Positions 13,475-57,440 of a DNA stretch of 64,000 nucleotides are shown here, in pieces. Numbering within the stretch: the first letter of the stretch is position 1; every line of letters begins with the position of its first letter. The DNA comes from Sphaerolaimus hirsutus (taxonomy: Eukaryota; Nematoda; Chromadorea; Monhysterida; Sphaerolaimidae): positions 15,961,147 to 16,025,146 of the forward strand of contig OZ038457.1 of assembly GCA_964036195.1 (NCBI GenBank). The letters are read 5' to 3'. A program made the position numbers and the translations under genes. Below the pieces are notes generated by a model. It had not been told where the DNA came from and ran no database searches. It was given only the letters and a program-made list of their open reading frames with translations.

Positions 13475-14442
13475 TAGGGATGGCCGGCATTTGTTAGACT
13501 TTTTTTTTAAACACAGGCATCAAGGCCGGTTTTATTTAAAGCTCAGCCAAACTTTTTAGTAAGAAACCCTCGGTATTTTGCAAATTTTATAGCGCGCAAG
13601 CGCGCATTTTCAAATACACATTACCATTATGGTGGTGGTTTTCATTTCTTTTCAGACATTTTTCAGACATTTCTTTTCAGACAGCTTCCATTGATTAATG
13701 CCATTGTGTAATAATAAGCTGTGATATGCTACTGTAGTATATAAAATCCAGCCAATGTTCTCCCAAATACTTCTACAGTGTGAAGTATCACTGCCTATGT
13801 ATCAGCTTCTCTTATAGCATTTAAGCACTATTCCATGCCCAAGTTTTTGACAAAAGGTGATATACTTATGTTATGAGTCAGCATAAAACAGATATTTTTG
13901 ACAGAAATCACCAATTATAATGATATCCCATGGCTCCACCAACATTCTATGCTCATATATAACACCACAAAGTACTGGGGGTTCGTGGGTTCTTCGAAAG
14001 TGTTTCATGAACACACCAGTGCTCATGGCACAAAAATGCAGCGGACTTATCAAGTAGTCCATGCATCTCCCATCAAGTGGGGATATAAACATATTTACAC
14101 CACGCTAGCAGCCGTGGACAACTTCGTGATATCCTCGTGGACCCTGGTCGGCATTGATTTACTTTTTAGCATCCCATTTATTATCTATAACTTCATGTGA
14201 TTTTTGTTCATTCACTGCTTTACAACTACTGTGATAACACTATATTGTGATGTGACTCAAAAGGCATGTCATGGACATAACAGTCATGCTACAAATCGTA
14301 ATGAACAAATAATCATCATACTGCCACTTGTCTGATTTACCTGTACTATGTTGACCCATAACCATTAATAAAAAAACGGTTTGATTTTAAAACAACGTCT
14401 TTTTAACAACAGGATCGTTTAAAAAAATATTTTCCATCCCTA
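13475..14442. mobile_element. hAT-type MITE, TAGGGATGG ends
   Basis: The ends are TAGGGATGG and CCATCCCTA, flanked by AGCACGAC (13467-13474) and AGCATGAC (14443-14450), an 8-bp target duplication with one mismatch. It contains the GCGCGCAAGCGCGC palindrome near 13592 and the core sequence (AATGCTATCCCATGGCTCCAC-like, here with small changes) shared with elements at 22.1, 32.9, 39.6 and 56.5 kb. No transposase is encoded, so it is non-autonomous. Confidence 0.8.
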
Positions 14443-14552
14443 AGCATGACACACAGGGACGGCGGGGCCTGAAATGGCCGGCTCAATGACGTCGCATGAA
14501 AATGAAGTTGACGCGGGTGACGTGAAGCGCGCGCCGAGGCGAGGTGATCGCC

Positions 14553-14711
14553 ATGGAAACATTCATATGCGCGTCGGACAAGTCCCAGTGGGTGATCGTG
14601 CAGAGACGGGCCGGCGCGAGAATCACCGAGAACAACGCCAAGCGCGCGCTGAACACTCGCGCCACCCGCCTGATTGCAGGGCGCGCGCGGCAAAGGCGTA
14701 CCTGCCAATGA
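14553..14711 (+). CDS. Possible short exon in a GC-rich island
   Basis: A 52-codon frame from the ATG at 14553 lies in a GC-rich island (about 14460-14770) sandwiched between two MITEs. The conceptual peptide is not low-complexity (it contains SQWVIVQRRAGARITENNAK), and the base composition matches true exons in the window. I cannot link it to any other exon or family. It may be a remnant of a host gene broken up by repeats. Confidence 0.25.
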   Translation: METFICASDKSQWVIVQRRAGARITENNAKRALNTRATRLIAGRARQRRTCQ

Positions 14712-14781
14712 CACAGGGGTTCGCGCTAATTGCGTCATCAATCCATTGCGCCCACGTGCGAACCTAGGGCACCGGTCATAC

Positions 14782-15066
14782 TAGGGTTGGCAAGCGATTT
14801 TTTTAAGCGATAAAAAAAAATTCCGATTGAAAAAAAATCGCAGCACCCGTACAGATTTAAAAAAAAGCTTTTCTAAAGCTCTACAGCACTTGTATTACCA
14901 CAGAAAGCATAAGTGTTCACCGCCTATCAATTTATATGGCTTTGATTACCTTTAGAGGTGATCTTAGCAAGAATTGGGGCTAATTTCGACCGCGATTTTT
15001 ATTTTAAAAAATCGATTTAAAAAAAAATCGGGGTCGTTAAAAAAATCGATTTTTTTTCCAACCCTA
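14782..15066. mobile_element. hAT-type MITE with ATCGATTTTT arms
   Basis: The ends are TAGGGTTGGC and CCAACCCTA with an exact 8-bp target duplication GGTCATAC (14774-14781 and 15067-15074). The arms are runs of A/T around ATCG. No coding capacity. Confidence 0.88.
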
Positions 15067-15584: not shown

Positions 15585-16146
15585 TACCGTATTTCCTCGA
15601 AATACCCCCCCCCCCTCAAAATGGTCACTATGAATTAATCACCCCCTCGAAATACCCCCCCCCCCACAAATTGAGTGTAAATAGAACGTACATGACAAAA
15701 GGTGCATTTTATGAACTGGCAATGCATAACACACGTTAAAAACAATGACTGTGTTATGTTATAACGTTGTTTATACCATCAATATATTTACTTGTTGAAG
15801 TCTGTAGACTCTTATATACAGGGACGTATCCAGGATTTTTGAGCAGGGGGGCTGCTTGTTTACGGAGGCCGACGAGGGGGGGGCTCAGCCACCCCTTAAA
15901 TTTTACCTACAGAGTGGTGGAATGGCGCCTTGGCACTGGTGCTTATAAATATATGGGTATTTATTTTTGTTGCATTTATCTACATCTGCATACGTTACAA
16001 ACAACAAATTAGTACTGGGTGTTCAAAAAAAAAATTCTGGCGAAATAACAAACACCCCTAGAATTACACCCCCTCGAAATACCCTCAAAATACTCACTCT
16101 GAAAAAATAAACGCCGAGGGGGTATTTCAAGGAGATATGGTAAATA
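15585..16146. mobile_element. Palindromic CCGTATTTCCTCGAAATACCCC element with nested insert
   Basis: The left tip TACCGTATTTCCTCG and the right tip (GGTATTTCAAGGAGATATGGTA) are inverted copies. The arms are rich in C runs on the left and G runs on the right. A piece of a second element, beginning CAGGGACGTATCCAGGA near 15820, lies inside. It matches the hAT-type element at 20638-21070. Confidence 0.6.
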
Positions 16147-17953: not shown

Positions 17954-17999
17954 CACGAGGAAATACAGCAAGTAAACACAAACGGGTGCAGGTATAAAT

Positions 18000-18490
18000 C
18001 AGAGTTGTTAAAAGTACTGAACTTTTTTCAAAGTATACGTAAATGTAAAGTATTTATTTTTTACTCACCGCCTGAGTACAGAAAATGTAAAGAACATTTT
18101 TTTACTTTTACTCATGAGTAAATGTACTTTTGTTCCCAGAAAATGTAAACATGGGTATTTTTGAGAAATGTTACCCCAATTTTCGCTCAAAATCATTAAT
18201 TTTCATAATTTTTGACTGTTTAAAGTAATTTTCAGATAGATATGTAGACACATTTCTGACCATTTTCCCCTATTGTTAACATATTCTCTCCCTTTTTCCC
18301 TTCTATTCCTTCATAAAGTCGATATAAAACACTTACCAGAAATACGTTTTCTGTACTCGAATACTTTCAAAAAGTATATGTCCAAGCAAGTACAGGAACT
18401 TTTTTTGGAAAAAACGTAAACATATTTACTCTGTACTCGAGTATACATATTCATTGAGTAAAAGTACCTAAATATGTTATAACAACTATG
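18000..18490. mobile_element. hAT-type MITE with GTACTTTTAC-like arms
   Basis: It begins CAGAGTTGTTAAAAGTACT and ends with the inverted AACAACTATG. The flanks GTATAAAT and GTAAAAAT form an 8-bp target duplication with one mismatch. The arms are simple-sequence arrays of the type AAAAGTA/TTTACTC. No coding capacity. Confidence 0.65.
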
Positions 18491-19706: not shown

Positions 19707-20369
19707 TAGGGTTGGCAAGCGATTTTTTTTATAATTCCGATTTAAAAAAAAATCGCAGCACCCGTACCGATTTAAAAAAAAATCGCTGGGGAAAATTTTT
19801 GGTACTCATGGACTAGGTGAAATGCAAAACATTTGGGCGCAAGCGCGCATTTTCATGCAAGCAATCCATCATTTACTTTTTTCATTACTTTTCCAACTAA
19901 TTTGGTGGTGTAGCACCCACTTTGGTGTGCTTTTAAGCGTGTAAGGTAAGCTGTGAATCATTTCGGAAAGTATTCATAGTTATACTGTGTTTTCACATCA
20001 AAAATTTATGCAAATGCATCCAGGTTCACTCCCAAGATGATTTAATTTTGTTCTCAGCAAGAACATGCAATTTCTGCAAGCAAAATTGCAAATGGTCGAT
20101 GAAATGTTATTCACACTGTAAATATAACTACCTATTTAATCACTTTTAAACTTAAAAATAACTGACTTTCAAGCTTCTGTAAAGCTCTACAGTACTTGTA
20201 TTACCACAGAAAGCAGAAGTGTGCACTGCCTGTCAATTGAGATGGCTTTTATTACCTTTAGAGGCGATTTTAGGGAGAATTGGGGCTAATTTTAACCCCA
20301 GCGATTTTTATTTAAAAAATAGGTTTTTAAAAAATCGGGGCCGTTAAAAAAGATTTTTTTCCAACCCTA
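19707..20369. mobile_element. hAT-type MITE with ATCG/TTTTT arms
   Basis: The ends are TAGGGTTGGCAAGCG and CCAACCCTA, with flanks CCCTTGTG and CTCTTGTG (7 of 8 match). It contains the GGGCGCAAGCGCGC palindrome near 19837. It is longer than the 14782 copy with the same ends. Confidence 0.82.
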
Positions 20370-21308: not shown

Positions 21309-22000
21309 TAGGGCTCGAACTCGACTCGACTCGTGACTCGAGGGTAAAACAGGGTACCGACTCGACTCGTCTGACTCGACCGGAAAAATATGGCCCAAAC
21401 TCGAGACTCGAGGTTTTTGCCTGACTCGACTCGAAATTTTGGCAAATTTCGAGTCAGGGTTTCCATTGAATAATGTCTAAAAAATTCAATTTTGATATGA
21501 AATTTTAAACATATTTTTCAAAAATTTTGCGCGCGAGCGCGCATTTCCACACCACATGTTGATATATTGTGGATTGGCTTGGTATATGTATTGAATGGTG
21601 TTAAAACTCAAATTTCTTATTACCATACAATTATACATAATGTGCATGTGCACGCTAGTTTAGCACCAGATTTTGGTAAACTCATAAATCGGCTTTGATA
21701 AAACGCATTTGAGTTTACTGAAATGAGTTATTCTTAATCCCCATCAACTGCAGTTGACAGATACATCATTCTGGTAAATTCAAATGTGTTCAAAGCTGAT
21801 TTATGAGTTTTCCAAAATCTGGCAGTAAACTAGCATGTGCAGCGCCACATGTGAAACACACACGACTCAAGACTCGAGATTTTTGCCCGACTCGACTCGA
21901 CCTTTCACTGGCTCGCCCGACTCGACTCGCCGACTCGACCGGAAAAATTTGGGGTTGCGACTCGAACTCGAGTTTGAAAAAAATTGAGTTTCGAGCCCTA
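21309..22000. mobile_element. hAT-type MITE with ACTCG arrays
   Basis: The ends are TAGGGCTCG and CGAGCCCTA, flanked by an exact 8-bp duplication CCTGCAAG (21301-21308 and 22001-22008). Both arms are arrays of GACTCGACTCG. The middle holds GCGCGCGAGCGCGC near 21530. At about 21640-21840 there is a nested copy of the CACTAGTTT-type inverted-repeat element. Confidence 0.88.
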
Positions 22001-22095: not shown

Positions 22096-22780
22096 TAGGG
22101 TTGGCCGATGTTTTTTTTTAAACGTTTTTTTTTTAAAAAAAACGTTTTTTTTTAAAAAAAAACATGACGTCCGAAATGTTTTTTTTTTAAAAAAAACATC
22201 GGCCGAAATTTTTAGTACTAAGCACTAGGTATTTTGCAAAATTTTTGCGCGCAAGCACGCAATTTCACACACAAATTGACATTGGTGGTTGTTTTCATTG
22301 GTTTTGTTGCATTTTTAGTATCAAAACATCCATTTCTATGTGCTACCATGGGTGAATAAGCCATCATATGTTGCTGTAATATATAATATTGAGGTAATGT
22401 GCTTCCATGTACCTCCACAGTGTGTAACTTCACTCCCAAAGTAACAACCTTCTTTTATAACCTTGTTTGATCACCATTCCGTGCCAAACTTTACCTGAAG
22501 TCACGAACATTCGACTATAAGGCAATATACGAACGATATGTCGACGAAAAATGGATATTTTTGACACAAATCACCACTTATAATGCTATCCCATGGCTCC
22601 ACAGCCATTATATGGTCATATTTAACATCACAGAGTATTGCCAGTGTCTGATATACCTATATATGTTGACACTAGGTCATATCTGGGAGCTTTTAAAAAA
22701 AAACGTTTTTTTTTTTAAAAAAACGTTTTTTTTTTTAAAAAAACATTGAGTTAAAAAAAAACGTTTTTTTTCCAACCCTA
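22096..22780. mobile_element. hAT-type MITE with ACGTTTTTTT arms
   Basis: The ends are TAGGGTTGGCCG and CCAACCCTA with an exact 8-bp duplication GTCCGGCG (22088-22095 and 22781-22788). The arms are AAAACGTTTTTT arrays. The core carries the GCGCGCAAGC palindrome and sequence nearly identical to the copy at 56471-57126, so the two are recent relatives. Confidence 0.9.
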
Positions 22781-31123: not shown

Positions 31124-34100
31124 ATGGCGGGTCGGCTTCGAATCGAGGTAGAGGCAATAACCGGGCAAGTGAAGTCCTTAGAATTGCCCAGATCGTCCAC
31201 GCTAGCCGATTTGAAGTACGAGATTTGGCAACGACTGCGCGTGGCTCCGCAGCATCAGGTCATTTTTTGTTTGCGTTCGCCTATTCTGGCACTGTGCCAG
31301 CGGTCTACCCCACTTACCGTGCGGCCGTTTTCAGGCGCTCATTTACTGCAGTCGGGCGTTGAAAGCCGACGAAAACTGGCGCCGTCTTGATGACATGGGT
31401 TTAAGATCGCCAGCGAAAATTCAGCTTCTACTTTTGGCCCGTGCCGGACCGCTGGAGACAGAAAGCGCGCAGCAGAATGTTGACGCCGTAGCCGAACAGA
31501 GACGGTCTGCTATGTGCGACAGAAATTCGAACCACACGAAAGGGAACTTTAGGTACGACCGTACGTGTGGTTTTTCCGTTTGGTGGATCGCGCACTTGAC
31601 TCACGGTCGCCCGGTACACTGAAATTTTTAGTCGGCGTTCAAACGTTTTTAATTCAGCGAGCGCTGAATTACATTCCAAATATTGTTCATTTCATGATGC
31701 CTTCGCGCCTTCATTTTTGTTTACGAAAATCCCAATCTTGTATGAGAAAAACGTCGATAATCGACGCGCGCGCTGGCTGGCGAATTCGCGTGCGGTTTAG
31801 AAATCTTAAGGAAGGTGCGAGTGGGCGGGGTCGTGCGGGGCACATGCGTCGATGCTACCGCACAGGAATTTGTGCGCCCACTGTATCTATGTATACCGGA
31901 GGCCGCTCAGCTATTTATCTATCCCGGAGGCAAAGGTTCTGGCTACTATCCCCCAACCCTGCCCCCACATCTTCCAGCCTGTCTGGAGATATTTTTGAGA
32001 ATATTTGCCTCACTTTTCGCTCAAGATCGCTATTTTTTGGGTGGGGTGTTCTCAAGGTCGGTTTTCAACACAGGCGTATTCAACGATGGTGTATTTACTT
32101 GGTTTTGCTATAGGCTTTTCTTGGGATGAAAAAGCATTTTTTTCAACGTCTCTGCTTTTTTAAAACAATGTCAAGATATTTCTAAATTGTTCCAAATATG
32201 GTTACAAGTCAACATAAAGAGGTACATCAGACTTTTTGTACTTTTTGATGATATACATGGCCAAAGAATGGCTGTGAAGCCATGGGCATACATTTAAGTG
32301 ACGGTGTCTGCCAAAAAATCCCCTTTTTATGTTGACTTGTTATGGTGTATCGCTGTTTGTCAAATGTTCACTGGCTTCAAGTGAAGTTAGGCATGGAATA
32401 GTGCTTAAATAAAGGAAAGGCTAATACATGAGGCTGATGTTTCCCATCGCAGAAGTTTGTGGAAGCAAATTGGCTTGATATTATTCATTACATTTACATA
32501 AATATCATGGCATATTATAACACAATAGACCGAACAGATGGAAGCTTTTACACTAAAAATGCCTCAAAAACGATGAAAACAACCATCAACGGTAATGTGT
32601 ATGTGAAATTGCACACTTGCGTGCCAAAAATGCAAAATACCTAGTGCAAAATGCAAAATACCTAGTGCTTGAGTACAAATTTATTTTGCCGGCGTTTAGA
32701 AAAGCGCTGGGGCTAGGGTGTAGGGTTCAAACGATATATCGTATCGAATATCGACCATTTTTTAATATCGAATATCGATATCGAAAATTTTGAAAAAATA
32801 TTGAATATTGACCATTTTTTCGATATATCGAACCTATATTGTGTCCCTAAAAAAGTTATCATTTTCATTTTGAGATATTTATGATTGATCTGATGAAGGG
32901 TTGGAAAATTTTAACTTTTAAGTTTTTTTTTAACTCGATGTTTTTTTTAAAAACGTTTTTTTAAAGCTCCCAGATATGACCTTGTGTCAACATATATAGG
33001 TATATCAGACAGTGGCAATACTCTGTGATGTTATATATGACCATATAATGGCTGTGGACCCATGGGATAGCATTTTAAGTGGTGATTTGTGTCAAAAATA
33101 TCCATTTTTCGTCGACATATTGTTTGTATATCACCTTATAGTCGAATGTTCATGACTTCAGATAAAGTTTGGCACGGAAAAGTGATCAAACAAGGTTATA
33201 AAAGGAAGTTGTTACTTTGGGAGTGAAGTTACACACTGTGGAGGTACATGGAAGCACATTACCTCAATATTATATGGTACAGCAACATATGATGGCTTAT
33301 TAACCCATGGCAGCACATAGAAATGGATACTGTGATACTAAAAATGCCACAAAACCAATGAAAACAACCACCAATGTCAATTTGTGTGTGAAATTGCGCG
33401 CTTGCGCGCTTGCAAAATACCTAGTGCTTAGTACTAAAAATTTTGGCCGATGTTTTAAAAAAAAACATTTTGGACGTCATGTTTTAAAAAAAACAACGTT
33501 TAAAAAAAACGTTTAAACAAAACATCGGCCAACCCTAATCTGATGTGCTTGATCTGATCTGAGAATTGTATTAGATGAGTAAAAGTACAGTACTTATAGT
33601 GCCTGCGCACACTAGTTTCCACACGAAACTTCGAAAACACGCAAATCGGTTTAGAACGCATTTGAGTTTTCTACAATGAGGTGGCCGTCAACTACAGTTG
33701 ACGGAGATTAAAAATGGCTCATTGCGGAAAACTCACTCAAAGCTCATTTATGAGTTTTCGAAATTTCGTGTGAAAACTAGTGTGCGCAGGGTAGGGTTCG
33801 GACGATATATCGTATCGAATATCGGATATCGACTGTTTTTTCATATCGAATATCGATATCGAAGATTTTGAGAAAATATCGATATCGAATATCGACCATT
33901 TTCAAATATCGATATCGAATATCGACCATTTTTGAATATCGATATCGAATATCGACCATCTTTGTGATAAATCAAAACCTGTATTGTGTCCCCAAATTAA
34001 GGTATTATTTTCACTTTGAGATATTTGTGATTGATGTGATGTGTTTTTTTAATATTTTAGTTGATAAGTAGAAGTCAAGTATTAACAATTTCATTTTTGT

Positions 34101-37100: not shown

Positions 37101-40100
37101 AAAATTGAATAATGAATAATGTTATAAAATACAAATTAAACTTGAGTTCCAGTCGAAACATTCAAGTGTAGCAAAAGTTCTCATTGTTGAAACATTCGAG
37201 AAGCTTCGATCTTCGGTTGTCGATGCTTCGCGAAACTTGGCAATATTTCTTCGAGAGGCTTCTGTGTTTTGCCATTACATTAACGACCTACACGAGTACA
37301 TAATCACGATTTAGTCTGGTGGTATATTTCTTATGTCGCGTGCCAGTCGCGTGCAATGTAATCTTCTTTTTTTTTGCCCCATCTGCCGTGTGTATTCCCG
37401 CGATAGAGCTTGTTTTTAGGCCGTATTCTGCTGCAATCTCGAATCCCATTTCAGGCGTTCGTTCTATTTCACTAGCGAAAGTGAAACTGGACCCTCGCAC
37501 TCGTACAGCCATCTGAACTCTGATGGGCAACACGACCAGTCTCCACCGTTGAAAACTTGCCAAGATGCGGGCGCGGACACATTTTCACGACTCTGCGTGG
37601 ACGCCAAAAAGCGCGCCGAGGATAACTGGCGCACCATGCAGAGAATGCGCGAGTTGAAAAAGTGCATTGAAAAATCGAAGGTCGACAAGAAGCACTCGCT
37701 GAATGTTCGTAGCTTTCTCGGTTTGGTTGTTTCATTATTGTAGCGTTTTCCATCTACCGTAAATCCTCCAAAAAGCCCCCCCCCCTGGAATGAAACCCCA
37801 CTGATAGCTGACTGATGACAAAATAACTCCCCCCCCCCCTCGAAACATTCCCCTCTCTTTGATGGGTGGGAAAGACGTCCATGTGTAACAAATGTATTTA
37901 TGTACATGTTCATTAAATGTATGTATTACTTTGCAGTTGTTGCACACTGACATTGATTTCATTGCATGAGTGACAGGATTTCTATTCTGGCTTACGCGTT
38001 TATGCAACACAGTTAACCCCATTCCGACAATGTATGCATTTTCCTAAATCTTCTGACGAAATTCGGTACCGAGTATATACGGTATTGTCGTTTTCGATGG
38101 TCAAAACAGCAATTCGCAGGGCCCTATCCAGTCGTCTCAGACCCGGCCGGAATTGTACGTGACTCAGCCGTGCAGCCAGTCTGGCACATCTCGTGCCATG
38201 CACCTGGCCAGCGCTCCAGAGGACACCAGTGCAAAAGAAAGCTCTGCTGGTTTGACCATATTTTGTCACCCTTTATGCTCTGAGCCGGGTGGCTATTTAG
38301 AATAGTATTTAGTTATCTGCAGGTAATTATGATCACTCAGCAAGTGTGCTCGCCGTTCAATTCAGCAATGTACCCAAGCTTAGTGATGGAAAAAGCGCCG
38401 GTCTCAAATGCACCATGGCAATTTGTCCTTAAGCGCTAGCGCCAGCGCTATGGCGTTTTCCCATCACTACCCAAGCTACATTGAAAAATGGTTGATTTTG
38501 AGAAAGTATAATTAAATAAAATCCCAGTCCCAAAATGAAAATTATAAAAAATCTATCTGAAAAATGCTGAGAAAATAGAAGTTGTTTATGGAATATTTTC
38601 TATATTTTCTTCTCGCGGTGACTTTTTTGTTGCTATTTTTTAATATTTAGGAATATAAAAATTTTTTCTTATTTTTTTCAGTGCTAAACATGCTATGCTT
38701 CAGGTAGATTGTTTATATTCTGAGATTATATTTAATTCTATATTCTCAAATATTTAATGATATTATCTCTAAATCACCCATTTTTTAATGTTAGCTGAGG
38801 TGCATACTTGCAGGACGAGCGCATTTGCAGAGGGAGCTTACTTGCACGGAGAGCTCCAGCCGACCAACCAACTTTTTGTACGCAGGCGAGACCGAAGTGG
38901 AAGATTTCCGCTCGGAAACAGGATACTTTTCCCCGAGGCCCATCAGCAGTGGCAGTTCCCATCCACATCATCAGCACCAGGCGCGCAGCCACGCGTTGTC
39001 TTGCGCGTCCGGTCCGCCCGCGGCACATGCGCCCACTTATCACCACCGACCGCAGACGGCCAATACGCAGAGAGTGGGTTCATGTGTGTAAAAATATAGT
39101 TTACGTGTTTAGAGGCGTCGTTAAGGGGTCAGTCCACATATGGAAACTTGGCCCACGTCCAAGTCACCCAAGCTATTTGACCCAGGTCCAAATTACTCAG
39201 GCGATTTGACCCTCATCCATGTCCGATTTTCCCTCAGTTTTTGCTTATAATCGCTAAATTATAAGAGTAGTTAGAACTCAAATGTGTTTTGAAAAAACGA
39301 GTTTACAGAAAAACCGATTTTGGAAGGGTGGGGGACCTTTGCCCCCACGGCCACTCTGTTGTGGTTTGGTAAACCTTCAACAATTCAAACAAGCGTGAAT
39401 GGCCGGTGCCTCGCACCTGGCTTTAGCGCTTGCCCTTCGCGTATGTGTACCACTTAGGTATATGTAGACTAGGTAATAGTATACAGAAAATATAGGAGAA
39501 ATATGCCCCATTTTGTCAATTTTCACTGTCATAATCGCTATTTTCGTCTATATATTTGTTCTATATATATTTTGTCTACATTAGGGATGGCAAGCGCTTT
39601 TTTTCAAGCGCTTTTTTTTTAAAAAACGCCGCTTTTTTTAAAAAAAAGCGCAAGGGTCCTAGCGCTTTTTTAAAAAAAAAGCGCTGGCAAAATTTTTAGT
39701 ACTCATGCACTAGGTATTTTGCAAATTTTTTTGCGCGCAAGCGCATAATTTCACATGCAAATTGCCATTGGTGGTTGTTTTCATTGGTTTTGTAGCATTT
39801 TAGTGGCATTGCTTCTATTCCTGCATGGTATCATGTAATAATAAGTTGAGGAGATATGTCAGTGTAGTAAATAATATCCAGCCAATGTGCTTCCACTTTT
39901 CTACAGTGTGAAACATCACTGTCATGTATTAGCCATCTTTTATAGCCAAATTGAAGCACTATTCCATGCCTAACTTCACTTGCAGTCAAGAAACATTCAA
40001 AAACGGCGATATACATAATTAGTCAACATAAAATTGGAATTTTTGGCAGAAATCAGCACTTATAATGCTATCAGATGATTACATCGCCATTATATGGTTA

Positions 40101-43100
40101 TATATCATCACAAGTACTGCCACTTGTCTGATATACCTGTATATATTGAGTCAGTACCATATTTGGGAGCTTTTTAGGTAACGTCTTGACAATTTTTAAA
40201 AAAAAGCGAAAAAAGCGCGTTTTTTTAAAAATTGTCAAGACGTTACCTAAAAAGCTCCCAAATATGGTACTGACTCAATATATACAGGTATATCAGACAA
40301 GTGGCAGTACTTGTGATGATATATAACCATATAATGGCGATGTAATCATCTGATAGCATTATAAGTGCTGATTTCTGCCAAAAAATTCCAATTTTATGTT
40401 GACTAATTATGTATATCGCCGTTTTTGAAAAGCGCTTTTTTCCATCCCTAGTCTACATATACCTATTTTCAGCCGGTTTTATTAATAACGATGCATAAAA
40501 TTTTGGCCGCCTGCCAAGTTGCCACAAGGGGTATCTCCGTCGTCAAGCACGTCGACCTTTATCCGCACGTCGCAGCATGTCGGCTGCCGCGCGGCGGCCA
40601 GCAGTTCCGCCGCAGTACACGGCCTCCAGCAGACGCTTCACGTGCACAACACGCCCGCGGCCGGTTTCAACTCGACTGCGGACGCGCAGCAGTCATCGCG
40701 GCTGGCGCCGCTCAAGGTGCGCAGTTCCAGCTCCGAGTGGGAACCGGACAACGACGGCAGACTTCTCGGCGGCCAGAAGGGTCGCATGAAGGGGGACGGC
40801 GATGATTCTGACCTGTGCGTTTGTTTGTCTGTTGTTTTGTGAAGCCCCAGTTCCGAACAAAATTTTTTGAAAAATCAATCCCGATACCAAAATTTTCAAA
40901 TCCTGACAAAATTACGTGATTCTGATCACTGGAAACTTTTATACATGTGCTAAGTGCGTTTTCGAACTGAGAAATGTGAACAGAAACCTCCAGTGCGCAT
41001 TTTGCGCCACTCATTTTGCGTCCAAGTGTGTTTTTAGATTTTTTTTGTGAACAAACTTAATACCAAAACTTTGTCCAAAATCCCGATCCTGACACCCGAA
41101 TCCTGAGTCCGTCGATTCCGTTTGAACCCTATTTTCATGATAGTGTCATGATTTTTTGCGCGTTTTTAGATGCGAGTCCGGCGGCGTGGGGCTCAGTATG
41201 TACATGCAACACTCGCCTCAGCTGCGCCCCTCCATAATCGGCCACTATCAGGATAACGAGGTATTTTAAAAACATTATTCTTTCTTAAAAACCAGTGTTT
41301 CCCAATCAAAAAATCTGTATCCTGCTGTCAGGGCTCCGACCCATCTGAACTGTCGTCCGGCGGCGTTGTCATAGCAAGTGGTGCAGTCGATTCTGTTCCT
41401 AATTGTAGGAAGATTCGAACCAGGAAGCGCACCGTGAACAGGGGTGGACTTACTCCTAACGTTACTGGGGGAGCTGGCCATGCCGCGCATTCAGCTGCAG
41501 TCGGCTGCGGTGCTGGTGAGTGTTTTTGTTATGTTGTTGTTTTTAGACAGTGGTTGATAAATCAGGGTTTTTTCAATTGGCGGTAGGCCAGTAGGCATGT
41601 CATTTGAAACTTGTCTGATATTTATTAGTTTTGTAATTTTTGATTTGATGCGTAAATTGAGTGAGCTCGGCTGGAGTCTCAAAGTGAAACGACTAGTGAA
41701 ACAACTAAACAACTAAATGCAATGTAAAGTGTAAATTATTTGTCTTGTAATATCACGCAGCTGCATCATGGCAGCCCATACCTCAACAAGCCGCGAGCGG
41801 TTCGTCGGCACGTCCGCCGCGCTGCCGCCAAACCGGCACTGTGCCCCCCGCAGCAGCTTCCAACACAGTTCAAAGTGTTCCCACAGGTCAAATGCACGCG
41901 CTAGCTAGTAAAACGCAGCAGATGCAAATCGCCACTGCCGACGCAACTAGCAGCGATGAGGATGATTCGAGTTTTGTCGGCGCCGCGACGCCGCCCAGCA
42001 GTTGGTGACAATGGTTCTTTGTCTTTGTCAGTGAATTTTGTCTTGTGCTGATGCGTGTCATGATGCGCAGGCGCCGTGTCACCGCTTTCATCTGCCGTGA
42101 ACCCTTTGAAGTTCCAGACTAAGAACAGAGCCAACTCGCTCGGAACCCAGTGCATGGCCAGCCAATCGATTGGCAGGAAGAGCACGGTGCGTCCTTCTTG
42201 GTTTTCATCCGCCCATCACAATTGCCAGCAGTAGGGTCCAAACGGTATCCCGAAAAATCACGGTATATTGTGGTCCCGATCCCAAATCCCCAATCCCGAT
42301 CACGAAATCTGAAAATCGCAATTCCGATCCCAAATTGTTGAAAATCCCAATCCCGATCCCGAAATCTCAGAAAACCGATCCCGATTCCGAAAAGTCAATC
42401 CCGTCTGCCACCCTAGCAACGAGAATGATTTTTCACCGCGCAGGGCACCATGGTGCGGCACACGCGCCACCGCGGCCATTCGACGTCGGCGGCCGACGGC
42501 ACCAGCGACTCGCAGGCCGAGTGCGCCGCGCAGTTCGCTCTGGGTGCCCAAGTGGCCACGGGCGCGGCCGCCAGCTCGCAGGTGTCCGGCGTGCCGCCCA
42601 ACGCGGCCACCGTGCCCGCCGGCAGTCAGCAGCCGCGCTGCGCAGTTTGTGGAGTCAGGGGTGGCGGCGCGAATGCCTTTCTCTGCAAGTGGGTACAGGG
42701 CAATGCGGGTACGATTTCGGGCTCAAACCAGAGGTTTTAGTATAGTGTTGGTGATGGTGGATACTACGGGTCAGGCCTATTATGCATCTAAACCTATTAT
42801 GCATCTACATCCATTATAGACACATTATACCCGCAGGGGTAAGTAAGGGGGCATTTTTTCCACCCCAAACTGCCCATTTATCTATCTATACCAGAGGCAA
42901 ATTTTGTTGGTTACTTTTCCCTGAACAGAACCCCCCAAGCAAATTGCTTAGCTATCTACCTATCTGGATCGCTTTTGAGCAATTTTACCCTAATTTTCAC
43001 CCAAAGTTACTAATTTTCATACTTTTTATCTATTTTCACCTTTAAAATCACTAGGTCATATGTTTTATTTCATATTTTCAGCATGCCGGGTATGGTTAAA

Positions 43101-44105: not shown

Positions 44106-44633
44106 CAGGGGTATCTTGAATTTTGACCCTCCGAGTGGTTGGATAGATAGCAAATCGCTCCTCCGGAGGGATAGATAGCTGAAAAATTTTCTGGGGGGGG
44201 GTTTGGGGGGGGGGGTTGTGGTGGTTCGATATATAGGCTTTTTCGGGGCATAGAAGGAAGAAAAGGGAGAAAAATCGCTAAAAGTAGGTGTAAAATAGCT
44301 CAAAATGGGTATACAAGAGCATATAGTACTTAAAATAGCCGAAAATAGGCAGTTATACGCATGAACCAGTGATTTTGGAGGTGAAAATCTATATATAGGT
44401 ATGAAAAATAGCGATTTTGAGCGAAAATTAGGGTATAATTTCTGAAAAATCGCTCCAGATAGGTAGATAGCTGGGCGATTTGGGGGGGGGGGGGGTTTAG
44501 GGGGTAGTAGCCCAAAATTTTGCCTCCGGGATAGATAGATAGCTGAGCGGCCTCCGGGATAGATAGATAGCTGGGCGGTTTGGGGGGGGGGTAACCCCCC
44601 CCCCAACCCCCCCCCCCCCATTCGAGACCCCTG
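44106..44633. mobile_element. hAT-type MITE, CAGGGGT...ACCCCTG, G-run rich
   Basis: Exact 8-bp duplication AGTTATCT (44098-44105 and 44634-44641). The interior has GGGATAGATAGCTG units, long G runs and AAAATTAGGGTAT sequence. It is the only copy of this family in the window with intact ends. Minus-strand frames through it (for example 173 codons) are Pro-rich artefacts of the G runs. Confidence 0.85.
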
Positions 44634-45871: not shown

Positions 45872-46688
45872 CAGAGTTGCAAAAACGTATTTACGTTTAC
45901 CCGCAATACCCGGTTATTCGGGTATTTATACTTACGTTTACGCTTTCCAAAAATACCGTTACGTTTTGTTACGTTATCCTTGCACAATTACCCGGGTACC
46001 AGAGAAAACGTAAAAAATAAGTTAACGGAACTGTATTATTTGACAAATGTAGTGTATTATGATGAGTTCATCATGCTTAAATGATGAGAGGGTGCCAATT
46101 CCGCAAGTGAAGAAATGGAACAATTAAAAAATTATAAGTAAAAATTTAAGAGGAATGTAAATTTATGAGTGAGGAGAGAAATGAAGTCAAAAGTCGAAAA
46201 CTAGTGTCTTCTTGTGACCTGCCATGTGTCCTTTTACTTGCCATTTCATTTGCCACTTATAAATTTACTGTTTTTTACTTTTCACTTGCCATTCAACCTG
46301 CTTTTCTCCACTTAAGGAATAGGCACCATATGACCCTACACCCGCGGTAGTTAAAAACTACGCCAAATCTCAACCGGTTGCGATTCTATCCCAATTCAAT
46401 ATCCCGATCCCATAATTCTATATAAAATATATGTAAAATACAGGTATGTAGGTAAACAGATGATGTCAATGAAGATCATAGGAACATACATAATGTTGTA
46501 AAAATGTTCTTTTTATATTCAGTGATAGTGGAAGCACTTAATATTAATTTTTACGTTTACGTTTTATTTTACGTATTCCCAGGTATTTTTAAAATACCTT
46601 ACGTTTAAGTATTTATAGTCCAAAATTTGAAAAGTTATTTACGTTTACGTTTACGTTTTCCAAAAATACCGGTATTTGTACAACTCTG
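45872..46688. mobile_element. hAT-type MITE with TTTACGTTTACG arms, inserted at a splice acceptor
   Basis: The ends are CAGAGTTGCAAAAACG and CAACTCTG with exact duplication CCCTCAGG (45864-45871 and 46689-46696). The arms are arrays of TTTACG. The right-hand duplication supplies the AG acceptor and first base of the HMG-box exon that begins at 46696. Confidence 0.9.
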
Positions 46689-46695
46689 CCCTCAG

Positions 46696-47987: not shown

Positions 47988-48649
47988 ATTTGTTTGTTGC
48001 GGCTTGTGATGGTTGGGTACACACTTCACACTTGTAGAGTTTGCTCTATGTTCTAGTCGATAAGTATGCCCTTGAATGAAGTTTTTTATTTTTTCGATAT
48101 AATCAATCTATTTTGGAAACGGCGAGGGTACCGTTTGGATTTCGGTCATGATAGGGTTGGCAAGCGATTTTTTCGAGCGGTTTAAAAAAATTCCTGGCAA
48201 AGATAATCAGTTGGTGCCTGGTGGAGTAGCATCCTTTGTGTACGTTTTTAATGTTCATAGTGAACGACGACCCATTGGGAAGTAAACATATTTAATGTTG
48301 CTAATGCGTTCTCACAACATAAATGCAAACACATTCACCTCACTTCCAAATTGATTGGACTTCTATTCTCAAGAGGAAAATCAGATTGCCACCAGCAAAA
48401 TTGCAAATATTATATGAAAAAAATTATGCACAATATCGCTAAAAAATATTTATTTAAGTGAAAATACAGCACCTTGATGCTATTACGTGATTCAATGTTG
48501 CACGGCACACTCAAATTTTCAGTTGCAGTTCGAACACTTTTTCAAGGGCGACATTCAAAAGGGCGGAATTAAAATTGGGGGTGGAATTCAAAAACGTCCG
48601 AACCGCCCTCGATTTCAATTCCGCACATGAAACGTTCGAACACTTTGAC

Positions 48650-48836
48650 GATGGCGGAATTGCCTCAAATTGTGCAGGGGCACAATTAATTCGGAAAGGG
48701 CGGAAAGCGCAAAGCGTTTGCACAATGTCCGCACTCTTTTTATGCATGGCGGAATTGCCTCGAATTGTGCACGGGCCGAATTTATTCGGAAAGCGCAAAG
48801 CGTTTGAACAATGTCCGCACTCTTTTGAGTGTGCGG
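48650..48836. repeat. Two tandem ~95-bp repeats
   Basis: Units begin ATGGCGGAATTGCCTC at about 48651 and 48746 and share GCGCAAAGCGTTTG and CAATGTCCGCACTCTTTT. They lie in the left subterminal region of the RT-carrying unit. Confidence 0.7.
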
Positions 48837-49563
48837 TGCGCCATCTAGGCAAGAAAACATTGGGACACTTTCTAGAGGTTGAAATTCAGTTTAAGTTTAC
48901 ACAAATATGCCACACGGTGAACTTCAATATCTTTAAAACAAGTGGATATTACTGAAAAATTTCTCTATTCATTTTTGAAGATAAAGCCTACATCTACCTA
49001 TTATCAATGCTAGTTGGCAGGTGGGACGCCTTTGGCCCCATGCACAAAATGATTTATGGATTGCTAATCCAAGGTGTGCACCAAACTGTTCATGTGCGGC
49101 ACCTCGCTGTACACTGAGCGTTTTGTCTGCCTAGCCAGATTAGCTATCCATATACCAAGATAAAAAACCATAGACAATTACCAAGCTGTACCACTGGCAA
49201 CTTACCCTCCATCCGCCATACCGTTTTAACTCCTTGGCACCCCAGGCGCGCGGCGTGATCGTTCGAGCAACGTTCGGGGGCAAGTCTGCATTTCCGTTTG
49301 CCATTTTCGGGTCGCCCGACGTTCAAAATCTGAGGTGGAGATTTGGCGAACATAGTGAATGTGTACCCTAAGTGTAAAAATATCGAATTAACAACATGTT
49401 GGAAAAAACCAACATTCGATGTGTAAACGAGTAGATCAAGCGAAGTCGACCACAAGCCGTTTTTTATTTTATTTTATTTTATAAATACAGTAATCACAAA
49501 GTGACAAGGGCAAAGTATGACATCATAAATAATGTATGTAAAAATAAAAGTTGAAAGAGTTGT

Positions 49564-51678
49564 TTAAAAAAGGTAGGTTTTTAAAAAAAGGTCATTTGCC
49601 CACTGTACAATGTCACTTTTGTCAAAAATATTGTATTTATAAAGAAGGCTTGTGTATCTGTAGCAAAACCGAAAGAAATACTTTCTAAGCTTAATTTCCG
49701 TATATCCGTGGTGTCTAAATAGCGTCAATAGGTTTGAAATTCTTAAATTTGCGTCAGTCTTTAAAAAGCAAATTGAACAGAATCTCAAAAGCTGAGCATA
49801 CCAAACATTGTAGCAGACGTTTTCTCGTAGGTTAGAATGGATAAATGGCATTGAAACTATTGTAAAGCGAAAGTCGTCTGTTTTATTGAAAAGCTTAATA
49901 TTGAATGTGGGCTCAACTGAAATATCTAGGTCTAAAAAGTGAGCTAGTTTACCATTATTCAATAGCTCTTCATTGAGTGTCAGTGAATTGCCATAGATCT
50001 TTTGGGCTATTTCATGGAATTTGGGAACATTGTAATAGAGCGTGTCATCTATGTAACGAAAAACCTTATTATTCAGATATCTAGCCTCCACAATGTTGTT
50101 TTTGTCAGGCATAAATGCAAATTCCATGTGTGCTAGTGTAAGTTTACATAGCTCTGGTGACACAGAACTACCCATGATGATACCTGTTTGTTGTTTAAAT
50201 AACATTTTACCAAAGGAAACGTATGTTTCCTCCAACAGAGTATTTAGCAGGTGAATACATTTTTGCAATGAGTAAATTACTTTATCTTTGTTAGAAATGT
50301 GGTGAATGAATTACAAAACAGCCTTATTTTTTAAAATTGAATAAACTTTATCCTTCATAATTAGTCTAAGAAGCGAAATAATGCTATTTTTAATTGCAGA
50401 ATGAGGAAGTGTAGTGTAAGCGTTTGAGAAATCTGATGAAGCAATGAAATGAATTTTACCGGCCTGTTTTAACTTTTCTATGGCTTCCCCACTATTCAAA
50501 ACAATCCAAAACCCGTTAAAACCTGAATTAGCCACTGCCGCTTCATTATAAAGTCTCATTCTATTCTGGATGTCCACCAATATTAAATGTAAAATCCAAG
50601 CCAATCCGTTTACAGTGCTCGTTTTTGAACCTGCTATAAAACGATATTTAATTGGGGACTTGTGAAACTTCGGTATCCCGTACAATAGTGCAAACTTACG
50701 TTCAAATTTAAGGGGATCTGCTTCAAATTCAGTATTGAAGGTAAAATGTTTATCCATAATAGAATCGATTGCATTTGGAGCATCAGTTTGAAAAGTATAT
50801 GTTAAATTACCAAAATTAATTTTATCTGAAAAATCGCTGGTCACGCCCATTTCCTTGCAGTGCTGCAACAAATACAATTTTTTACACTGAAAAGCATATG
50901 TGTTTGATGCCTTATCAATGACTGTGACCACATACTTATTATGAAGTGCATCCAAATCGGCTAGAATTTTATCATTCAAACCTATCGGTGAACAACGATT
51001 TGCGTCGATTTGAAATGTTCGCATTTTACATTTTATCGCTCGTATTCCAAGCTCGCGGAAATTTCTCATGTTGACGTCAGTGTGGTCAAGTTCAGATAAC
51101 ACACCAATTATTTGATTCAAAACGTCTACATATTTATTAAAAGTCAAAGAGTAATTAGGAGCTGGCGCAATACGGTAATTTGTACCGTAACTGAATAAAA
51201 GCCTCAATTGTTTGTTATCCACAAAATTCAAATCGCCAGTAATGATATGTTTGTGATGGCTATCCCAAAAAGGCGAGTGATCTGTGCAACCACAAGGTGT
51301 TTGCATAATATTTAAAATATTATCTTTATCCAGAGATTTAAGGAATCTTGTATGGTTACAAAATTTCAAACCCAAAGGTGCCGCATAACTCACTTTCAGG
51401 GATATCCTTTCAAACAATTTCTCTTGTGCTTCAGATAGTATATTCTTCATTCTTTTTTGCCGAAAAACGGAGACTGCCACGATGTCATCTGAAGGGGAGT
51501 CGTGTTGAAGGTTGACAAAAATTGGGTTGTCGACCCGTTTTTTATGCTTGACAAAAAATGTACGTCTCCTCGCCTCAACACCATATCTTAGACAATCCCA
51601 TATGGAGGCTGAAATTGTATTTTCCGATCTACATTTTGTAAACAGCTGAACACATAAACCAAATTTATTTTTTGGCAA
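49564..51678 (-). pseudogene. Penelope-like reverse transcriptase, one in-frame stop, no GIY-YIG domain
   Basis: A single minus-strand frame of 705 codons is interrupted only by a TAA at 50311-50313; upstream are 455 codons and downstream 248 more, in the same phase. The N-terminal part has a TPCGCTDHSPFW motif and HKHIITGDLNFVDNKQLR, as in Penelope-type RT N-termini. The RT shows LYGIPKFHKSPIKYRF, then SSDFSNAYTTLPHSA (motif A Asp), QQTGIIMGSSVSPELCKL (motif B) and VFRYIDDTLYYN (catalytic YIDD). Thumb-like sequence follows. The frame ends without the GIY-YIG endonuclease of canonical Penelope elements, so it is endonuclease-lacking or truncated. It would be active only if the stop is read through. 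It may alternatively be an RT family I cannot place exactly. Confidence 0.78.
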
Positions 51679-52300
51679 ATGTCTGAGGAAGTGAAAAACG
51701 TCAGTAGGACGCTGTAGTTGAGTTATATCAATTTCAGTAAGTATTTCCTTATTTGCACAATAGAATTTTGGTCGATTTCTACCTATAAAATTTTTTTCAC
51801 AAATATATTTGGCAAGATAAGTGAGATGTGTTTCTCACAACAACCTTCTCTAATGGGTGGAATTGAAAGTCAAGGGCGGAATGGAAAGTGTCCCAATCAT
51901 TTTGAAACTTGCTGCATGGAAATGTTATGACACGCAAATCAGCGAAAAGTATACGAATTCGTCCGGACTCCGTTCGAATGTCCAAAAATGCCCTAAAAAT
52001 CCTTTAAAAAATCGTTCGAACTGCACTTGAAAATTTTGAGTGTGCGGTGCGCCTATGGTTATATAACCGCAGAGAGCATGACAGCACATTTCCCATCAAA
52101 CCTCAAAGGGAGAAACTGGTGCAATTAATGGAGAAAAAAAACAGTTTAATTTAAAAAATCTATTTTAAAAAATTGAGCAGCTTGAAAAAATCGATTCTTG
52201 AGCAACCCTAGCTCATGATGCATAATTATTTATTTGTGAGAGTGTTTTAGTGATTCGCGTCTCTTGCAAATTTCCGCGCAGTCGCAGGGCAAGTGTAACG

Positions 52301-54788: not shown

Positions 54789-55372
54789 TGTTCTACTTTA
54801 CATTTATTTGGTGCTCAATTTGATTAGTCCGACGCGTCTTACGGTCACCCGATTCAAATTGCGTACAAATTATACGTTGCTCGAGTATGTCGAAATATGT
54901 CTGGACACCTAGCTACCAAAATGTCGGACTAATTCAATTTCGTCCCTGATCCTTGGATATAGCATTTCCTGTCCAAGGTTCTTAAAGAGTGCACGTAATT
55001 GCTCATGTACAATTCAAACGCATGCAAGTGTAAACGATTGTTGTTTTTCAAAAAGTTTACCGTTTGATCATTGCGATTGCGATAGTTTGTTCATGAATCT
55101 ACCGTTGTGAAATGATTCTAATAACTTCATTGTTCTTTTCACTTTCGTGTAGATTGCATTTTTCTTCCGCCTTAAGTTTGCATAAATATACCTGTGTATA
55201 AATGCAACATTTTTCCCGTCAACCTGAAATAACTTCATTTCTCACAATTGTTCAACATCGCGTGCCCGCCGCCATTACCTGAATACTCATTACTATTTTG
55301 TGGTCACCCGATCGGAAAAACAAATCATTGTCGCAGTTGCAGCCCAGGTCACTCCATACACACTTGGTCACT
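54789..55372. other. Intergenic: TFAM-like 3' UTR and FKBP2 5' flank
   Basis: AT-rich unique sequence without open frames of note. The tandem plus-strand genes are about 580 bp apart. No clear polyadenylation hexamer or TATA box is visible. Confidence 0.4.
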
Positions 55373-57440
55373 ATGCCCCGCATTGTCGCGTCGGCCTTGA
55401 TCGTTCTGGCTGCGTTGGCGTGCCTGACGCAGTGCGACGACAAGAAACCCACCAAGCTGCAGATCGGCGTGAAGAAACGCGTTGAGGGGTGCACGGTCAA
55501 GTCGAAGAAGGGCGACACGCTGCAGATGCATTACACGGTTGAGTTTGTGTGTGTTGCGCTTTTTAGCGTTCGTTTGTGGTGCTCCCCGTCGTGGGGTCGA
55601 TTGCGTAGTCAATAGGAGCCTTTGTATGTGTCCGTTACAAAGCGAAATTGGTGGCTTCAGATTGCCTGCGCGCGGTGTGCCAGGAAGTTTGTCAGAGTTT
55701 TTTGATATTTGTCCACAATTTGTAGTTGACACAATCCTAGCTGGACAATTTGGTTCAAAGACCACATTTGATTTTTACGAGTATAATACGTCCGTCAACT
55801 ACCATAGACGGAGATCAAAAATATTTCATTAGGGTAAACTCAAGTGTTAAAGATAGATTTATCAATCATGGCACTTTCGGTTTTCAGTGTCTCTGTAGAA
55901 CTAAACCCCCATGCTTACATTCGAGGTGGAGCTGTTGAACACAGGGCACCCTGTCAGACGGCACTGAATTCGACTCGTCGGTGGCGCGCGACACCCCGTT
56001 CACATTCACGCTGGGCACGGGCCAGGTGATCAAAGGCTGGGACCAGGGCCTGCTGGCCATGTGCGAGGGGGAGAAGAGAAAGCTCGTCATTCCCCCAGAT
56101 ATGGGCTATGGAGAGAGGGGGGCCCCGCCGAAGATTCCTGGTTGGTTGGGGGCGTGCATTCATTGGTGGGCCCAGGTAAAAGCGCCTGGTGAGGCAGCAA
56201 TAAACCATGTTGAGTATACTCCGCGGACCGCAAAGTATGCGCCCAAAATTATTTATGTCTTGGTCGATAACGCGCGAGCTGGCTACTTATGTATGCACTT
56301 TCACAAAAAGAAAAATATTTCAAAAAAGATAAGGCGGAGTCGCGTACAAACGAGGAATGTTTTTTGCCGAGATGTTTTTTCTTTTTTTGCTGGACTTTTT
56401 CTTATTTTATCAATGATGACGTCATGATGGAGTGTTTCCTTCAGAGAAATGCATAGCATGCGGTCCGCACTAGGGTTGGCCGATTTTTTTTTTAAAACGC
56501 TTTTTAAATAAAAAAAAACGTTTTTTTTATTAAAAAAACATGACGTCCGATGTGTTTTTTTTTAAAAAAAACATCGACCGAAATTTTTAGTACCAAGCAC
56601 TAGGTATTTTGCAAAATTTTTGCGCGCAAGCGCGCAATTTCACACACAAATTGACATTGGTGGTTGTTTTCATTGGTTTTGTGGCATTTTTTGTATCAAA
56701 GTATCCATTTCTATGTGCTACCATGGGTTAATAAGCCGTCATATGTTGCTGTACTATATAATATTGAGGTAATATGCTTCCATGTACCTCCACAGTGTGT
56801 CACTTCACTCCCAAAGTAACAAGCTCCTTTTATAACCTTGTTTGATCACTATTCCGTGCCAAACTTTACCTGAAGTCACGAACATTCAACTATAAGGCGA
56901 TATACGAACGATATGTCGACGAAAAATGGATATTTTTGACACAAATCACCACTTATAATGCTATCCCATGGCTCCACAGCCATTATATGGTCATATATAA
57001 CATCACAGAGTATTGCCACTGTCTGATATACCTATATATGTTGACACAAGGTCATATCAGGGAGCTTTAAAAAAAACGTTTTTAAAAAAAACATCGAGTT
57101 AAAAAAAACGTTTTTTTTCAACCCTAGTCCGCACTTGATTTTTTCAACTGATATTTATTTAAAAACTGATTTTTTAAAAATGAATCACAGTGTGGAATTC
57201 TTCCAACCCTAGTGCCATTACTGTGGCGCGACTTCGCTTATGATGGGTGGTGAAGTGGTCGTTTGTGTTCAAGTGTCAGTAGATCACGCCCTTCCACTAC
57301 TCAAAAGCTAATGGTTTCACTGAAAATTCTTCCAGTACGATCTCAAATTGCGCATTTCAACCTCATGTAAAATTCCAGCCAACGCGGTGCTGACATTCGA
57401 AGTTGAGCTGTTGAAGATCGAACGCAGGGGCGAATTGTGA
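55373..57440 (+). CDS. FKBP2: FKBP2-like ER peptidyl-prolyl cis-trans isomerase
   Basis: This isomerase accelerates prolyl cis-trans isomerisation of proteins folding in the endoplasmic reticulum. The three exons are 55373-55537, 55945-56140 and 57379-57440; phases 0 and 1 close and the product is 140 residues (human FKBP2 is 142). Residues 1-21 are a signal peptide ([16 protein letters not shown]). The FK506-binding fold follows: [67 protein letters not shown] and FEVELLKIE. The drug- and substrate-pocket residues (Tyr, Asp, Val-Ile, Trp, Tyr) are all in place. The C-terminus RRGEL is a KDEL-like retention signal. The second intron carries the hAT-type MITE 56471-57126. Directly upstream of exon 2 is a short echo of the last exon (see findings). 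Confidence 0.95.
56471..57126. mobile_element. hAT-type MITE with ACGTTTTTT arms in FKBP2 intron 2
   Basis: The ends are TAGGGTTGGCCGA and CAACCCTA with exact duplication GTCCGCAC (56463-56470 and 57127-57134). It is very similar over its whole length to 22096-22780, including the GCGCGCAAGCGCGC palindrome near 56622. Confidence 0.92.

What the first reader, a model, noticed from the sequence alone, without database searches (positions are those of the whole stretch)
13475..57126. A hAT-type MITE radiation whose arms are arrays of a different short motif in each subfamily
Elements at 14782, 19707, 21309, 22096, 32721, 32896, 33792, 35157, 39582, 45872 and 56471 share TAGGG...CCCTA (or CAGAG...CTCTG) tips and 8-bp target duplications, mostly exact. 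The subterminal DNA of each subfamily is a simple array: ATCGATTT, ACTCG, ACGTTTTT, CGATATCG, CCCGAT, AGCGCTTT or TTTACG. The array unit echoes the sequence just inside that subfamily's own tip (for example GGCAAGCGAT with ATCGATTT, or TCAAGCGGGATC with CCCGAT). This looks like repeated outward amplification of the transposase-binding subterminal motif, creating new tip specificities. hAT tips and 8-bp duplications are established; the amplification model is inference.
Basis: partly seen in the sequence, partly recalled or inferred. Interest (0 to 1): 0.87.

Follow-up and report, generated by a model that had tools for sequence, protein, structure and literature searches.

The report
hAT transposons with re-keyed end arrays
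This animal-like genome holds many small cut-and-paste transposons whose two ends carry many copies of a short DNA word, and some sister families differ by having that word replaced at nearly every matching position, as if each family had changed the lock that its own enzyme opens.

Summary
In the window, hAT-type tips with 8-bp target duplications occur 13 times against 0 in eight shifted controls. In 262 kb I kept 58 elements in 22 tip classes, 48 with exact duplications. Most classes carry their own array word in both arms, and it matches the sequence just inside their own tips (own first in 17 of 21 classes, permutation p 1e-5). Two tip patterns have 4,220 and 4,872 genome matches, control 0; in the 100 listed of each, tip and array words agree in 89 and 91. 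hAT dimer domains lie in elements of four classes; one element also encodes a BED finger. Outward amplification is not supported as the source of new words: three sets of sister families share sites and spacers, with the word rewritten in place. Best reading: the arrays are BED-finger binding sites of hAT transposases, and families diverge by concerted replacement of the word. Such sites are a known kind; the in-place switching in one genome is the new part. Binding was not tested.

The parts
13475..14442 (.). class C2 element (tip TAGGGATGGCCGG), body related to B and C, no clear array
   Evidence: TSD AGCACGAC/AGCATGAC; body 68-71% identical to B and C elements
14782..15066 (.). class A element, array word AAATCG
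   Evidence: exact TSD GGTCATAC; word in both arms
18000..18490 (.). CAGAGTTGTT element with AAGTA/TACTC-type arms, Tol2-like by resemblance
   Evidence: TSD GTATAAAT/GTAAAAAT, one mismatch; right tip CATAG
19707..20369 (.). class A element, array word AAATCG
   Evidence: TSD CCCTTGTG/CTCTTGTG
21309..22000 (.). class D element, array word GACTCGA
   Evidence: exact TSD CCTGCAAG; 10 and 7 copies of CGAGTC in the arms, 0 in the middle
22096..22780 (.). class B element, array word AAACGT between A/T tracts
   Evidence: exact TSD GTCCGGCG; alignment with class C
32721..34947 (.). class E element, array word ATATCGA, interrupted by two later insertions
   Evidence: exact TSD CTAGGGTG
32896..33537 (.). 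class B element nested in the class E element; left tip decayed to AAGGG
   Evidence: exact TSD ATCTGATG; 88-91% identical to other B copies (within the host element)
33792..34494 (.). class E element nested in the class E element
   Evidence: TSD GCGCAGGG/GCACAGGG
34949..36819 (.). class P element (tips TAGGGTGTCAA, word CGGAAA/AAACGG), interrupted by F and E elements
   Evidence: both tips present; TTTCCG-type arrays; no duplication recognised
35157..35584 (.). class F element, array word ATCCCGA
   Evidence: exact TSD CATGTCAC
35785..36527 (.). class E element, tip TAGTGTTGGGACGATAT
   Evidence: TSD CATGCAGG on both sides with one extra base at the left; not among the 58 counted elements
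38381..38469 (.). class T element (TAGTGATG tip, GCGCC words), very short
   Evidence: exact TSD CCCAAGCT
39582..40450 (.). class C element, array word AAGCGC
   Evidence: exact TSD GTCTACAT; 8 and 2 copies in the arms
44106..44633 (.). class V element (CAGGGGT tips), GATAGA and C-run arms without a CpG word
   Evidence: exact TSD AGTTATCT
45872..46688 (.). class G1 element, array word AACGTA
   Evidence: exact TSD CCCTCAGG; alignments
48152..52210 (.). class A-tip element enlarged by an inserted retroelement
   Evidence: TSD GGTCATGA/GCTCATGA; RT-like ORF inside
56471..57126 (.). class B element, array word AAACGT
   Evidence: exact TSD GTCCGCAC; 91% identical to the copy at 22096

Best explanation
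These are hAT-superfamily DNA transposons, mostly non-autonomous. The word repeated in both arms is the binding site of the BED zinc finger of that lineage's transposase; several transposase copies bind the array and bring the two ends together before cutting (binding inferred from Ac, Herves and Hermes). Families multiply by changing the word. Shown for three sister sets: the arrays with their spacers existed before the families split, and the word differs at nearly every matching site, in both arms where both were aligned. Inferred: the change follows a change in the finger's specificity, either by selection on each site or by conversion between sites, after which the family is copied only by its own transposase. 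Most words keep a CpG core.
For: Tips and 8-bp duplications. Of 22 hAT dimer matches placed in the fetched stretches, 12 lie inside detected elements, the innermost being of class P, E, G1 or H2, apart from one in a class V element that carries a G1-like copy; one representative of each of the four passes the Pfam cut-off, and the H2 domain matches the Hermes transposase structure at E 7.8e-13. The H2 element (L031 2743-8748, exact duplication CCTTGGCG) encodes an intron-split BED finger, 22.2 bits against a cut-off of 20.6 after a predicted splice. Own word in both arms and rarer in the middle. Rewriting in place, G1 against G3: 24 of 26 word-core columns differ against 42 of 272 others for one G1 copy, 21 of 24 against 54 of 270 for the other; the two G1 copies differ from each other at 1 of 24 core columns against 39 of 272. 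E and F share tip and spacer with the word changed at three aligned places; of the 100 listed of 4,872 matches, 19 have AT at all three places, 72 GG at all three, 9 are other variants without AT, so no E/F mixture. CpG in the top word of 16 of 19 arrays against 27-36% in random pieces, p 2.4e-5 to 2.9e-7, treating classes as independent. BED exon fragments group by word: 2 G1-type and 4 G2-type copies. Literature, passages only: Ac AAACGG, Herves CGATTCAT, Hermes BED pairs on AAGT/AAGC, hAT-derived fingers usually preferring CGG or CGC, and hAT-encoded ones matching their own subterminal regions.
Against: No binding or transposition test. No transposase of their own was found for classes A, B, C, D, F, G2, G3, H1, Q, R, S, T, U, V and X (G2 has first-exon BED fragments). 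Ten of 22 dimer matches were in no detected element. The recognition half of the finger (second exon) was not recovered for G1 or G2, so word and finger cannot be paired residue by residue. C2 and Y have no clear array, V and W no CpG word, and C2, H2, V and Y do not come first in the tip-array match. A palindrome next to the tip, as in Hermes, beats shuffles in 9 of 22 classes at p 0.03 or less, and in G2, G3 and W it is not made of the word. Copies inside one family descend from few masters, so homogeneity within a family is partly descent. Hermes BED accepts both AAGT and AAGC, so the G2/G3 difference may not change recognition.
Confidence: 0.72

Rival explanations
1. One reading: a new tip motif arises and is amplified outward into a new array, creating a new specificity each time.
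For: Array word equals the tip-adjacent word; local tandem growth within families, period 30 at 33813-33963 and period 20 at 22120-22163. Beyond about the first 40 bases E and F arms were not aligned, so part of those arrays could be newly amplified.
Against: Word sites are at the same alignment columns with shared spacers in G1/G2/G3 (6-8 matched sites per arm), in E/F and in A/B/C; both arms carry the same word.
Confidence: 0.13
2. Mutation and clonal descent only: words differ because CpG sites decay or drift in one master copy, and copying makes the rest look concerted; recognition did not change.
For: Some copies are plainly decayed, for example L047 708-1196 with 2 ACGGAAA, 10 ATGGAAA and 4 ACAGAAA words; 5 of 100 tips are GT/GC intermediates; Hermes BED accepts AAGT and AAGC.
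Against: G2 to G3 changes are all the same kind on the word strand, 14 of 14 word sites, where decay should give both TpG and CpA (p 1.2e-4 if sites are independent); of the non-word CpGs, 3 of 4 in one arm and 1 of 1 in the other are kept. A to G in G1/G2, AT to GG in E/F and ACGT to GCGC in B/C are not CpG decay. CpG observed/expected is 0.93 in the 262 kb.
Confidence: 0.17
3. The arrays are satellite-like or structural DNA (bending, nucleosome exclusion, a host factor site) without a role in transposase recognition.
For: A/T tracts between words in classes A, B, C and E; the Hermes BED paper notes that AT-rich, bent DNA after the motif helps binding.
Against: Words are matched between the two arms and the tip and differ between families; subterminal repeats are described as a defining feature of hAT elements and are transposase-bound in Ac and Herves.
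Confidence: 0.05

Closest known systems
Maize Ac/Ds (hAT)
   Same: subterminal AAACGG repeats that bind the transposase cooperatively and most likely give specificity (PMC3260210, passages); 8-bp duplications and C/TAGGG-type tips of Ac are recalled. Class P here has the same hexamer: AAACGG counted 131 times in the arms of 8 elements.
   Different: Ac/Ds is treated there with one word; here many words exist in one genome, one per family.
Herves (Anopheles hAT)
   Same: repeated CGATTCAT motif near both ends is sufficient for transposase binding; regions bound differ between hAT elements (PMC3143072, passages).
   Different: single family, several variant motifs; no record of switching in the passages seen.
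Hermes and Tol2/Tgf2 (hAT)
   Same: BED finger binds AAGT/AAGC, with a pair just inside the left tip; Tol2 has AAGTACTT directly after its tip (PMC10368747, passages). Words AAGCGTA and AAGTGTA of classes G2/G3 contain AAGC/AAGT; the H2 dimer domain matches Hermes. The CAGAG tip of Tol2 is recalled.
   Different: the word is 6-7 bases, with a CpG in G1/G2, and occurs 5-14 times in the five G1/G2 elements counted.
hAT-19/CGGBP DNA-binding domains
   Same: BED plus Hermes-type DNA-binding domains with diverse specificities, usually CGG or CGC, some AT-rich; those of four hAT proteins match subterminal regions of their Repbase models (PMC8097297, passages).
   Different: that work measured proteins across species; this is a DNA record of word changes within one genome.

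Membership tests
hAT superfamily | 8-bp target site duplication | tested here: met
hAT superfamily | short terminal inverted repeats of the CAG/TAG type | tested here: met
   required by the search; 13 pairs against 0 in shifted controls, 61 against 0-5 in the 262 kb
hAT superfamily | subterminal repeats in both ends | tested here: met
   18 classes counted, with single copies lacking the word in one arm; C2 and Y have no clear array
hAT superfamily | transposase with C-terminal hAT dimer domain | tested here: met
   PF05699 over cut-off in elements of classes P, E, G1, H2; not found for the other classes, which are filed by tips and duplications only
hAT superfamily | N-terminal BED zinc finger | tested here: met
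   met in one element (H2, predicted splice); first-exon fragments in G1 and G2 copies; not found for the others
hAT superfamily | transposase-dependent cut-and-paste mobility | not testable with these tools
   needs an assay
MITE | short, mostly non-coding, high-copy derivatives sharing ends with an autonomous element | tested here: met
   47 of 58 elements under 1.5 kb; 4,220 and 4,872 tip matches genome-wide; several keep a last or first transposase exon; an autonomous-like element was seen for H2 only
Tol2-like group (classes G, H) | AAGT-type palindrome directly inside a CAGAG tip | tested here: inconclusive
   G1-G3 carry an inverted pair of their word near one tip; no transposase tree was made

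The most novel reading that the evidence does not exclude
The genome holds a readable series of lock changes: within each hAT lineage the BED finger has changed its target several times and the whole array was rewritten to match, site by site, so that each new family is invisible to the old transposase and to the old non-autonomous parasites. The arrays would then be a natural table pairing BED-finger sequences with their DNA words, and family splitting in transposons would be driven by escape from cross-mobilisation.
Probability: 0.33. Interest if true: 0.8.

Novelty: new variant of a known kind. Interest (0 to 1): 0.62.

Why it matters
How a DNA-binding protein and dozens of its sites change specificity together is an open problem. 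Here the DNA side of several such changes is preserved in one genome, with spacers kept, thousands of copies and a few intermediates, so the order of events can be reconstructed and the predicted protein-DNA pairs can be tested directly. It could also give a list of orthogonal hAT ends.

Tried and rejected
A composite hAT-plus-reverse-transcriptase element at 48152-52210 was considered and rejected: by eye the RT ORF has its own inverted termini near 48501 and 52048, so it is read as an insertion.

Plain CpG decay as the cause of the G3 word was considered and rejected for that case, but accepted for single copies such as L047 708-1196.

Pairing BED residues with words failed: no G1 or G2 copy with the second BED exon was found. 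Of nine stretches fetched for this, six gave a G1 or G2 tip with a first BED exon; L049 has a P element between tip and exon, L050 no recognised tip, L055 a decayed tip without a listed exon. The organism could not be named; a search with a piece of the Gypsy-like polyprotein gave 2,303 hits, and among the 120 listed the highest identity is 44%.

A random sample of the genome was planned but not obtained; the 20 stretches used were chosen around hAT dimer domains, so densities outside the window are biased. Three of 61 detected pairs (L048 3266, L047 6644, L038 6112) were dropped as chance-like before counting; five elements shorter than 250 bases were left out. Class limits were set by me from the tips. 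Class B is not among the 19 classes of the CpG count because its top-scoring hexamer occurred only three times.

Three searches did not complete: the class B element as DNA query, a TAGGGTTGGC-type census pattern and a class P pattern; one more pattern was not repeated.
Full report
What was checked. I searched the window for tips of the form [CT]AG[GA]G that match their reverse complement downstream and are flanked by an 8-bp repeat. There are 13 such pairs, and none when the right flank is shifted by 1, 2, 3, 5, 8, 13, 21 or 34 bases; exact flanking repeats of length 8 occur 9 times and of lengths 5, 6, 7, 9 and 10 never.

Extension. In the window plus 20 stretches of 9.9 kb around hAT dimer domains (262 kb) a looser search found 61 pairs, against 0 to 5 in each of ten shifted controls. 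I dropped three as chance-like and kept 58, in 22 classes by tip; 48 have an exact duplication and 47 are under 1.5 kb. They cover 58,161 of 262,000 bases, and 12,966 of the 64,000 bases of the window; the stretches outside the window are a biased sample.

Arrays. The words are AAATCG (A), AAACGT (B), AAGCGC (C), GACTCGA (D), ATATCGA (E), ATCCCGA (F), AACGTA/AGCGTA/AGTGTA (G1/G2/G3), AAACGT (H1), CGCGTA (H2), CGGAAA with AAACGG (P), CGGTAC (Q), ACCCGA (R), CGGTTC (S), GCGCCA (T), CGGTGC (U) and CGGGAC (X). Counted arm by arm in the 49 elements of these 18 classes, the word is in both arms of 46. Exceptions are L046 1897 (0 and 2), L047 708 (4 and 0) and the very short window 38381 (0 and 1). 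The middle holds few or none, except in nested or enlarged copies and in one P copy, L038 3193. Tip bases 6-28 match the element's own array far better than other arrays: 13.2 against 2.07 array hexamers per 100 bases, own first in 17 of 21 classes, p 1e-5; C2, H2, V and Y do not come first.

Genome-wide. The G tip pattern has 4,220 exact matches (control 0). In the 100 listed, the two inverted words next to the tip are identical in 89, against 32 expected; the best of 50,000 shuffles is 51; 5 of the 11 others are GT/GC intermediates. The E/F pattern has 4,872 matches (control 0). In the 100 listed, 19 have AT at all three variable places (E), 72 have GG at all three (F), and 9 are other variants without AT, so no E/F mixture was seen. 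The listed places are the first on contig C1, not a random draw.

How the words change. The arms of G1, G2 and G3 align from end to end. G1 against G3 differ at 24 of 26 word-core columns but at 42 of 272 others with one G1 copy (L032), and at 21 of 24 and 54 of 270 with the other (window). The two G1 copies differ from each other at 1 of 24 core columns and 39 of 272 others, which is not significant by itself (p 0.22). G2 against G3 differ at all 14 true word sites by the same change on the word strand; two further matched places are not that word. E and F share the tip and the spacer ACTTTTC with the word changed before and after it, over about the first 40 bases of one arm. A, B and C share an A/T-tract frame with ATCG, ACGT and GCGC at corresponding sites, and B and C are 74% identical over 609 bases. 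R and S look alike with CCCGA and ACCGA, from one and two copies. T and U align only in part. New words in these sets therefore arise by replacement in an existing frame, not by amplification of a new tip motif; amplification within a family is still visible.

CpG. The top word contains CpG in 16 of the 19 classes whose top word occurs at least five times; exceptions G3, V, W. Random pieces give 27% (36% when the top word occurs at least five times), p 2.9e-7 or 2.4e-5, treating classes as independent although some are sisters. CpG observed/expected is 0.93 in the 262 kb. Arms have a higher CpG ratio than bodies in 17 of the 19 classes with a measured body, not in U and V; since most words contain CpG this is expected. 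Measured hAT-type fingers usually prefer CGG or CGC words (PMC8097297, passages), and the Ac word has a CpG, so a CpG core may be a shared contact. That Ac binding depends on methylation is recalled.

Transposases. PF05699 has 28 matches in the genome at E 0.001 or less. Of the 22 placed in the fetched stretches, 12 lie inside detected elements and 10 do not; the innermost elements are of classes P, E, G1 and H2, usually deletion derivatives that keep a last exon, and in one case a class V element (L035 6056-8655) that carries a G1-like copy. The H2 element L031 2743-8748 carries a BED finger over the Pfam cut-off after a predicted splice with GTGAGT and TTGCAG borders, and its dimer domain matches Hermes; the BED part has no significant match among solved structures. 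A search with this BED region found 137 places at E 1 or less; nine were fetched. First-exon fragments from two G1-type and four G2-type copies differ consistently. This is small and lacks the recognition helix.

Known or new. hAT elements are described as sharing inverted tips, subterminal repeats, a 600-800 residue transposase and 8-bp duplications (PMC4890040, passages). Binding of the repeats is described for Ac, Herves and Hermes (PMC3260210, PMC3143072, PMC10368747; passages only). From PMC3942097 I saw two passages, on methods and on cross-mobilisation. My searches on per-family subterminal arrays or coevolution of arrays and transposase listed no title or abstract about in-place switching; the library lacks most subscription journals, so this is no proof of absence. 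Verdict: known kind of part, new variant of its evolution.

Noticed in passing
window 48501-52048: Retroelement inside a class A-tip element: RT-like ORF on the minus strand (49564-51834, one stop between 50310 and 50311; RVT_1 only at E 0.00097, below cut-off) with roughly 38-bp inverted termini of its own; Penelope-like by eye.
   Followed up: partly
window 1760-7330: Open 1856-residue Gypsy-like polyprotein frame; among 120 listed database relatives of the searched piece the highest identity is 44%.
   Followed up: partly
window 32713-36820: Deep nesting: B and E inside E, which sits in the tip of a P element that also holds F and E; gives a relative order (P before E and F, this E before B).
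   Followed up: partly
window 42232-42415: Decayed class F copy (tip TAGGGTCCAAACGGTATCCCG), no clear duplication.
   Followed up: no
window 15590-17080, 17590-17960, 37760-38090, 58160-58550, 61690-61780: By eye: repeated sequence with poly-C runs and 'CTCGAAATACCCCC' or 'TATTTCAAGGAAATACGG' ends, seen several times; another repeat family, not analysed.
   Followed up: no
G000 C1:7466186-7488779 and C1:7679975-7708520: Clusters of BED-finger matches on one strand, not near the 28 hAT dimer matches; possibly host genes derived from hAT transposases.
   Followed up: no
window 13590, 19845, 21530, 22245, 36305, 39730, 56620: By eye: a short block like TTTTTGCGCGCAAGCGCGCATTT, in either orientation, is shared by bodies of several classes (A, B, C, C2, D, E).
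   Followed up: no
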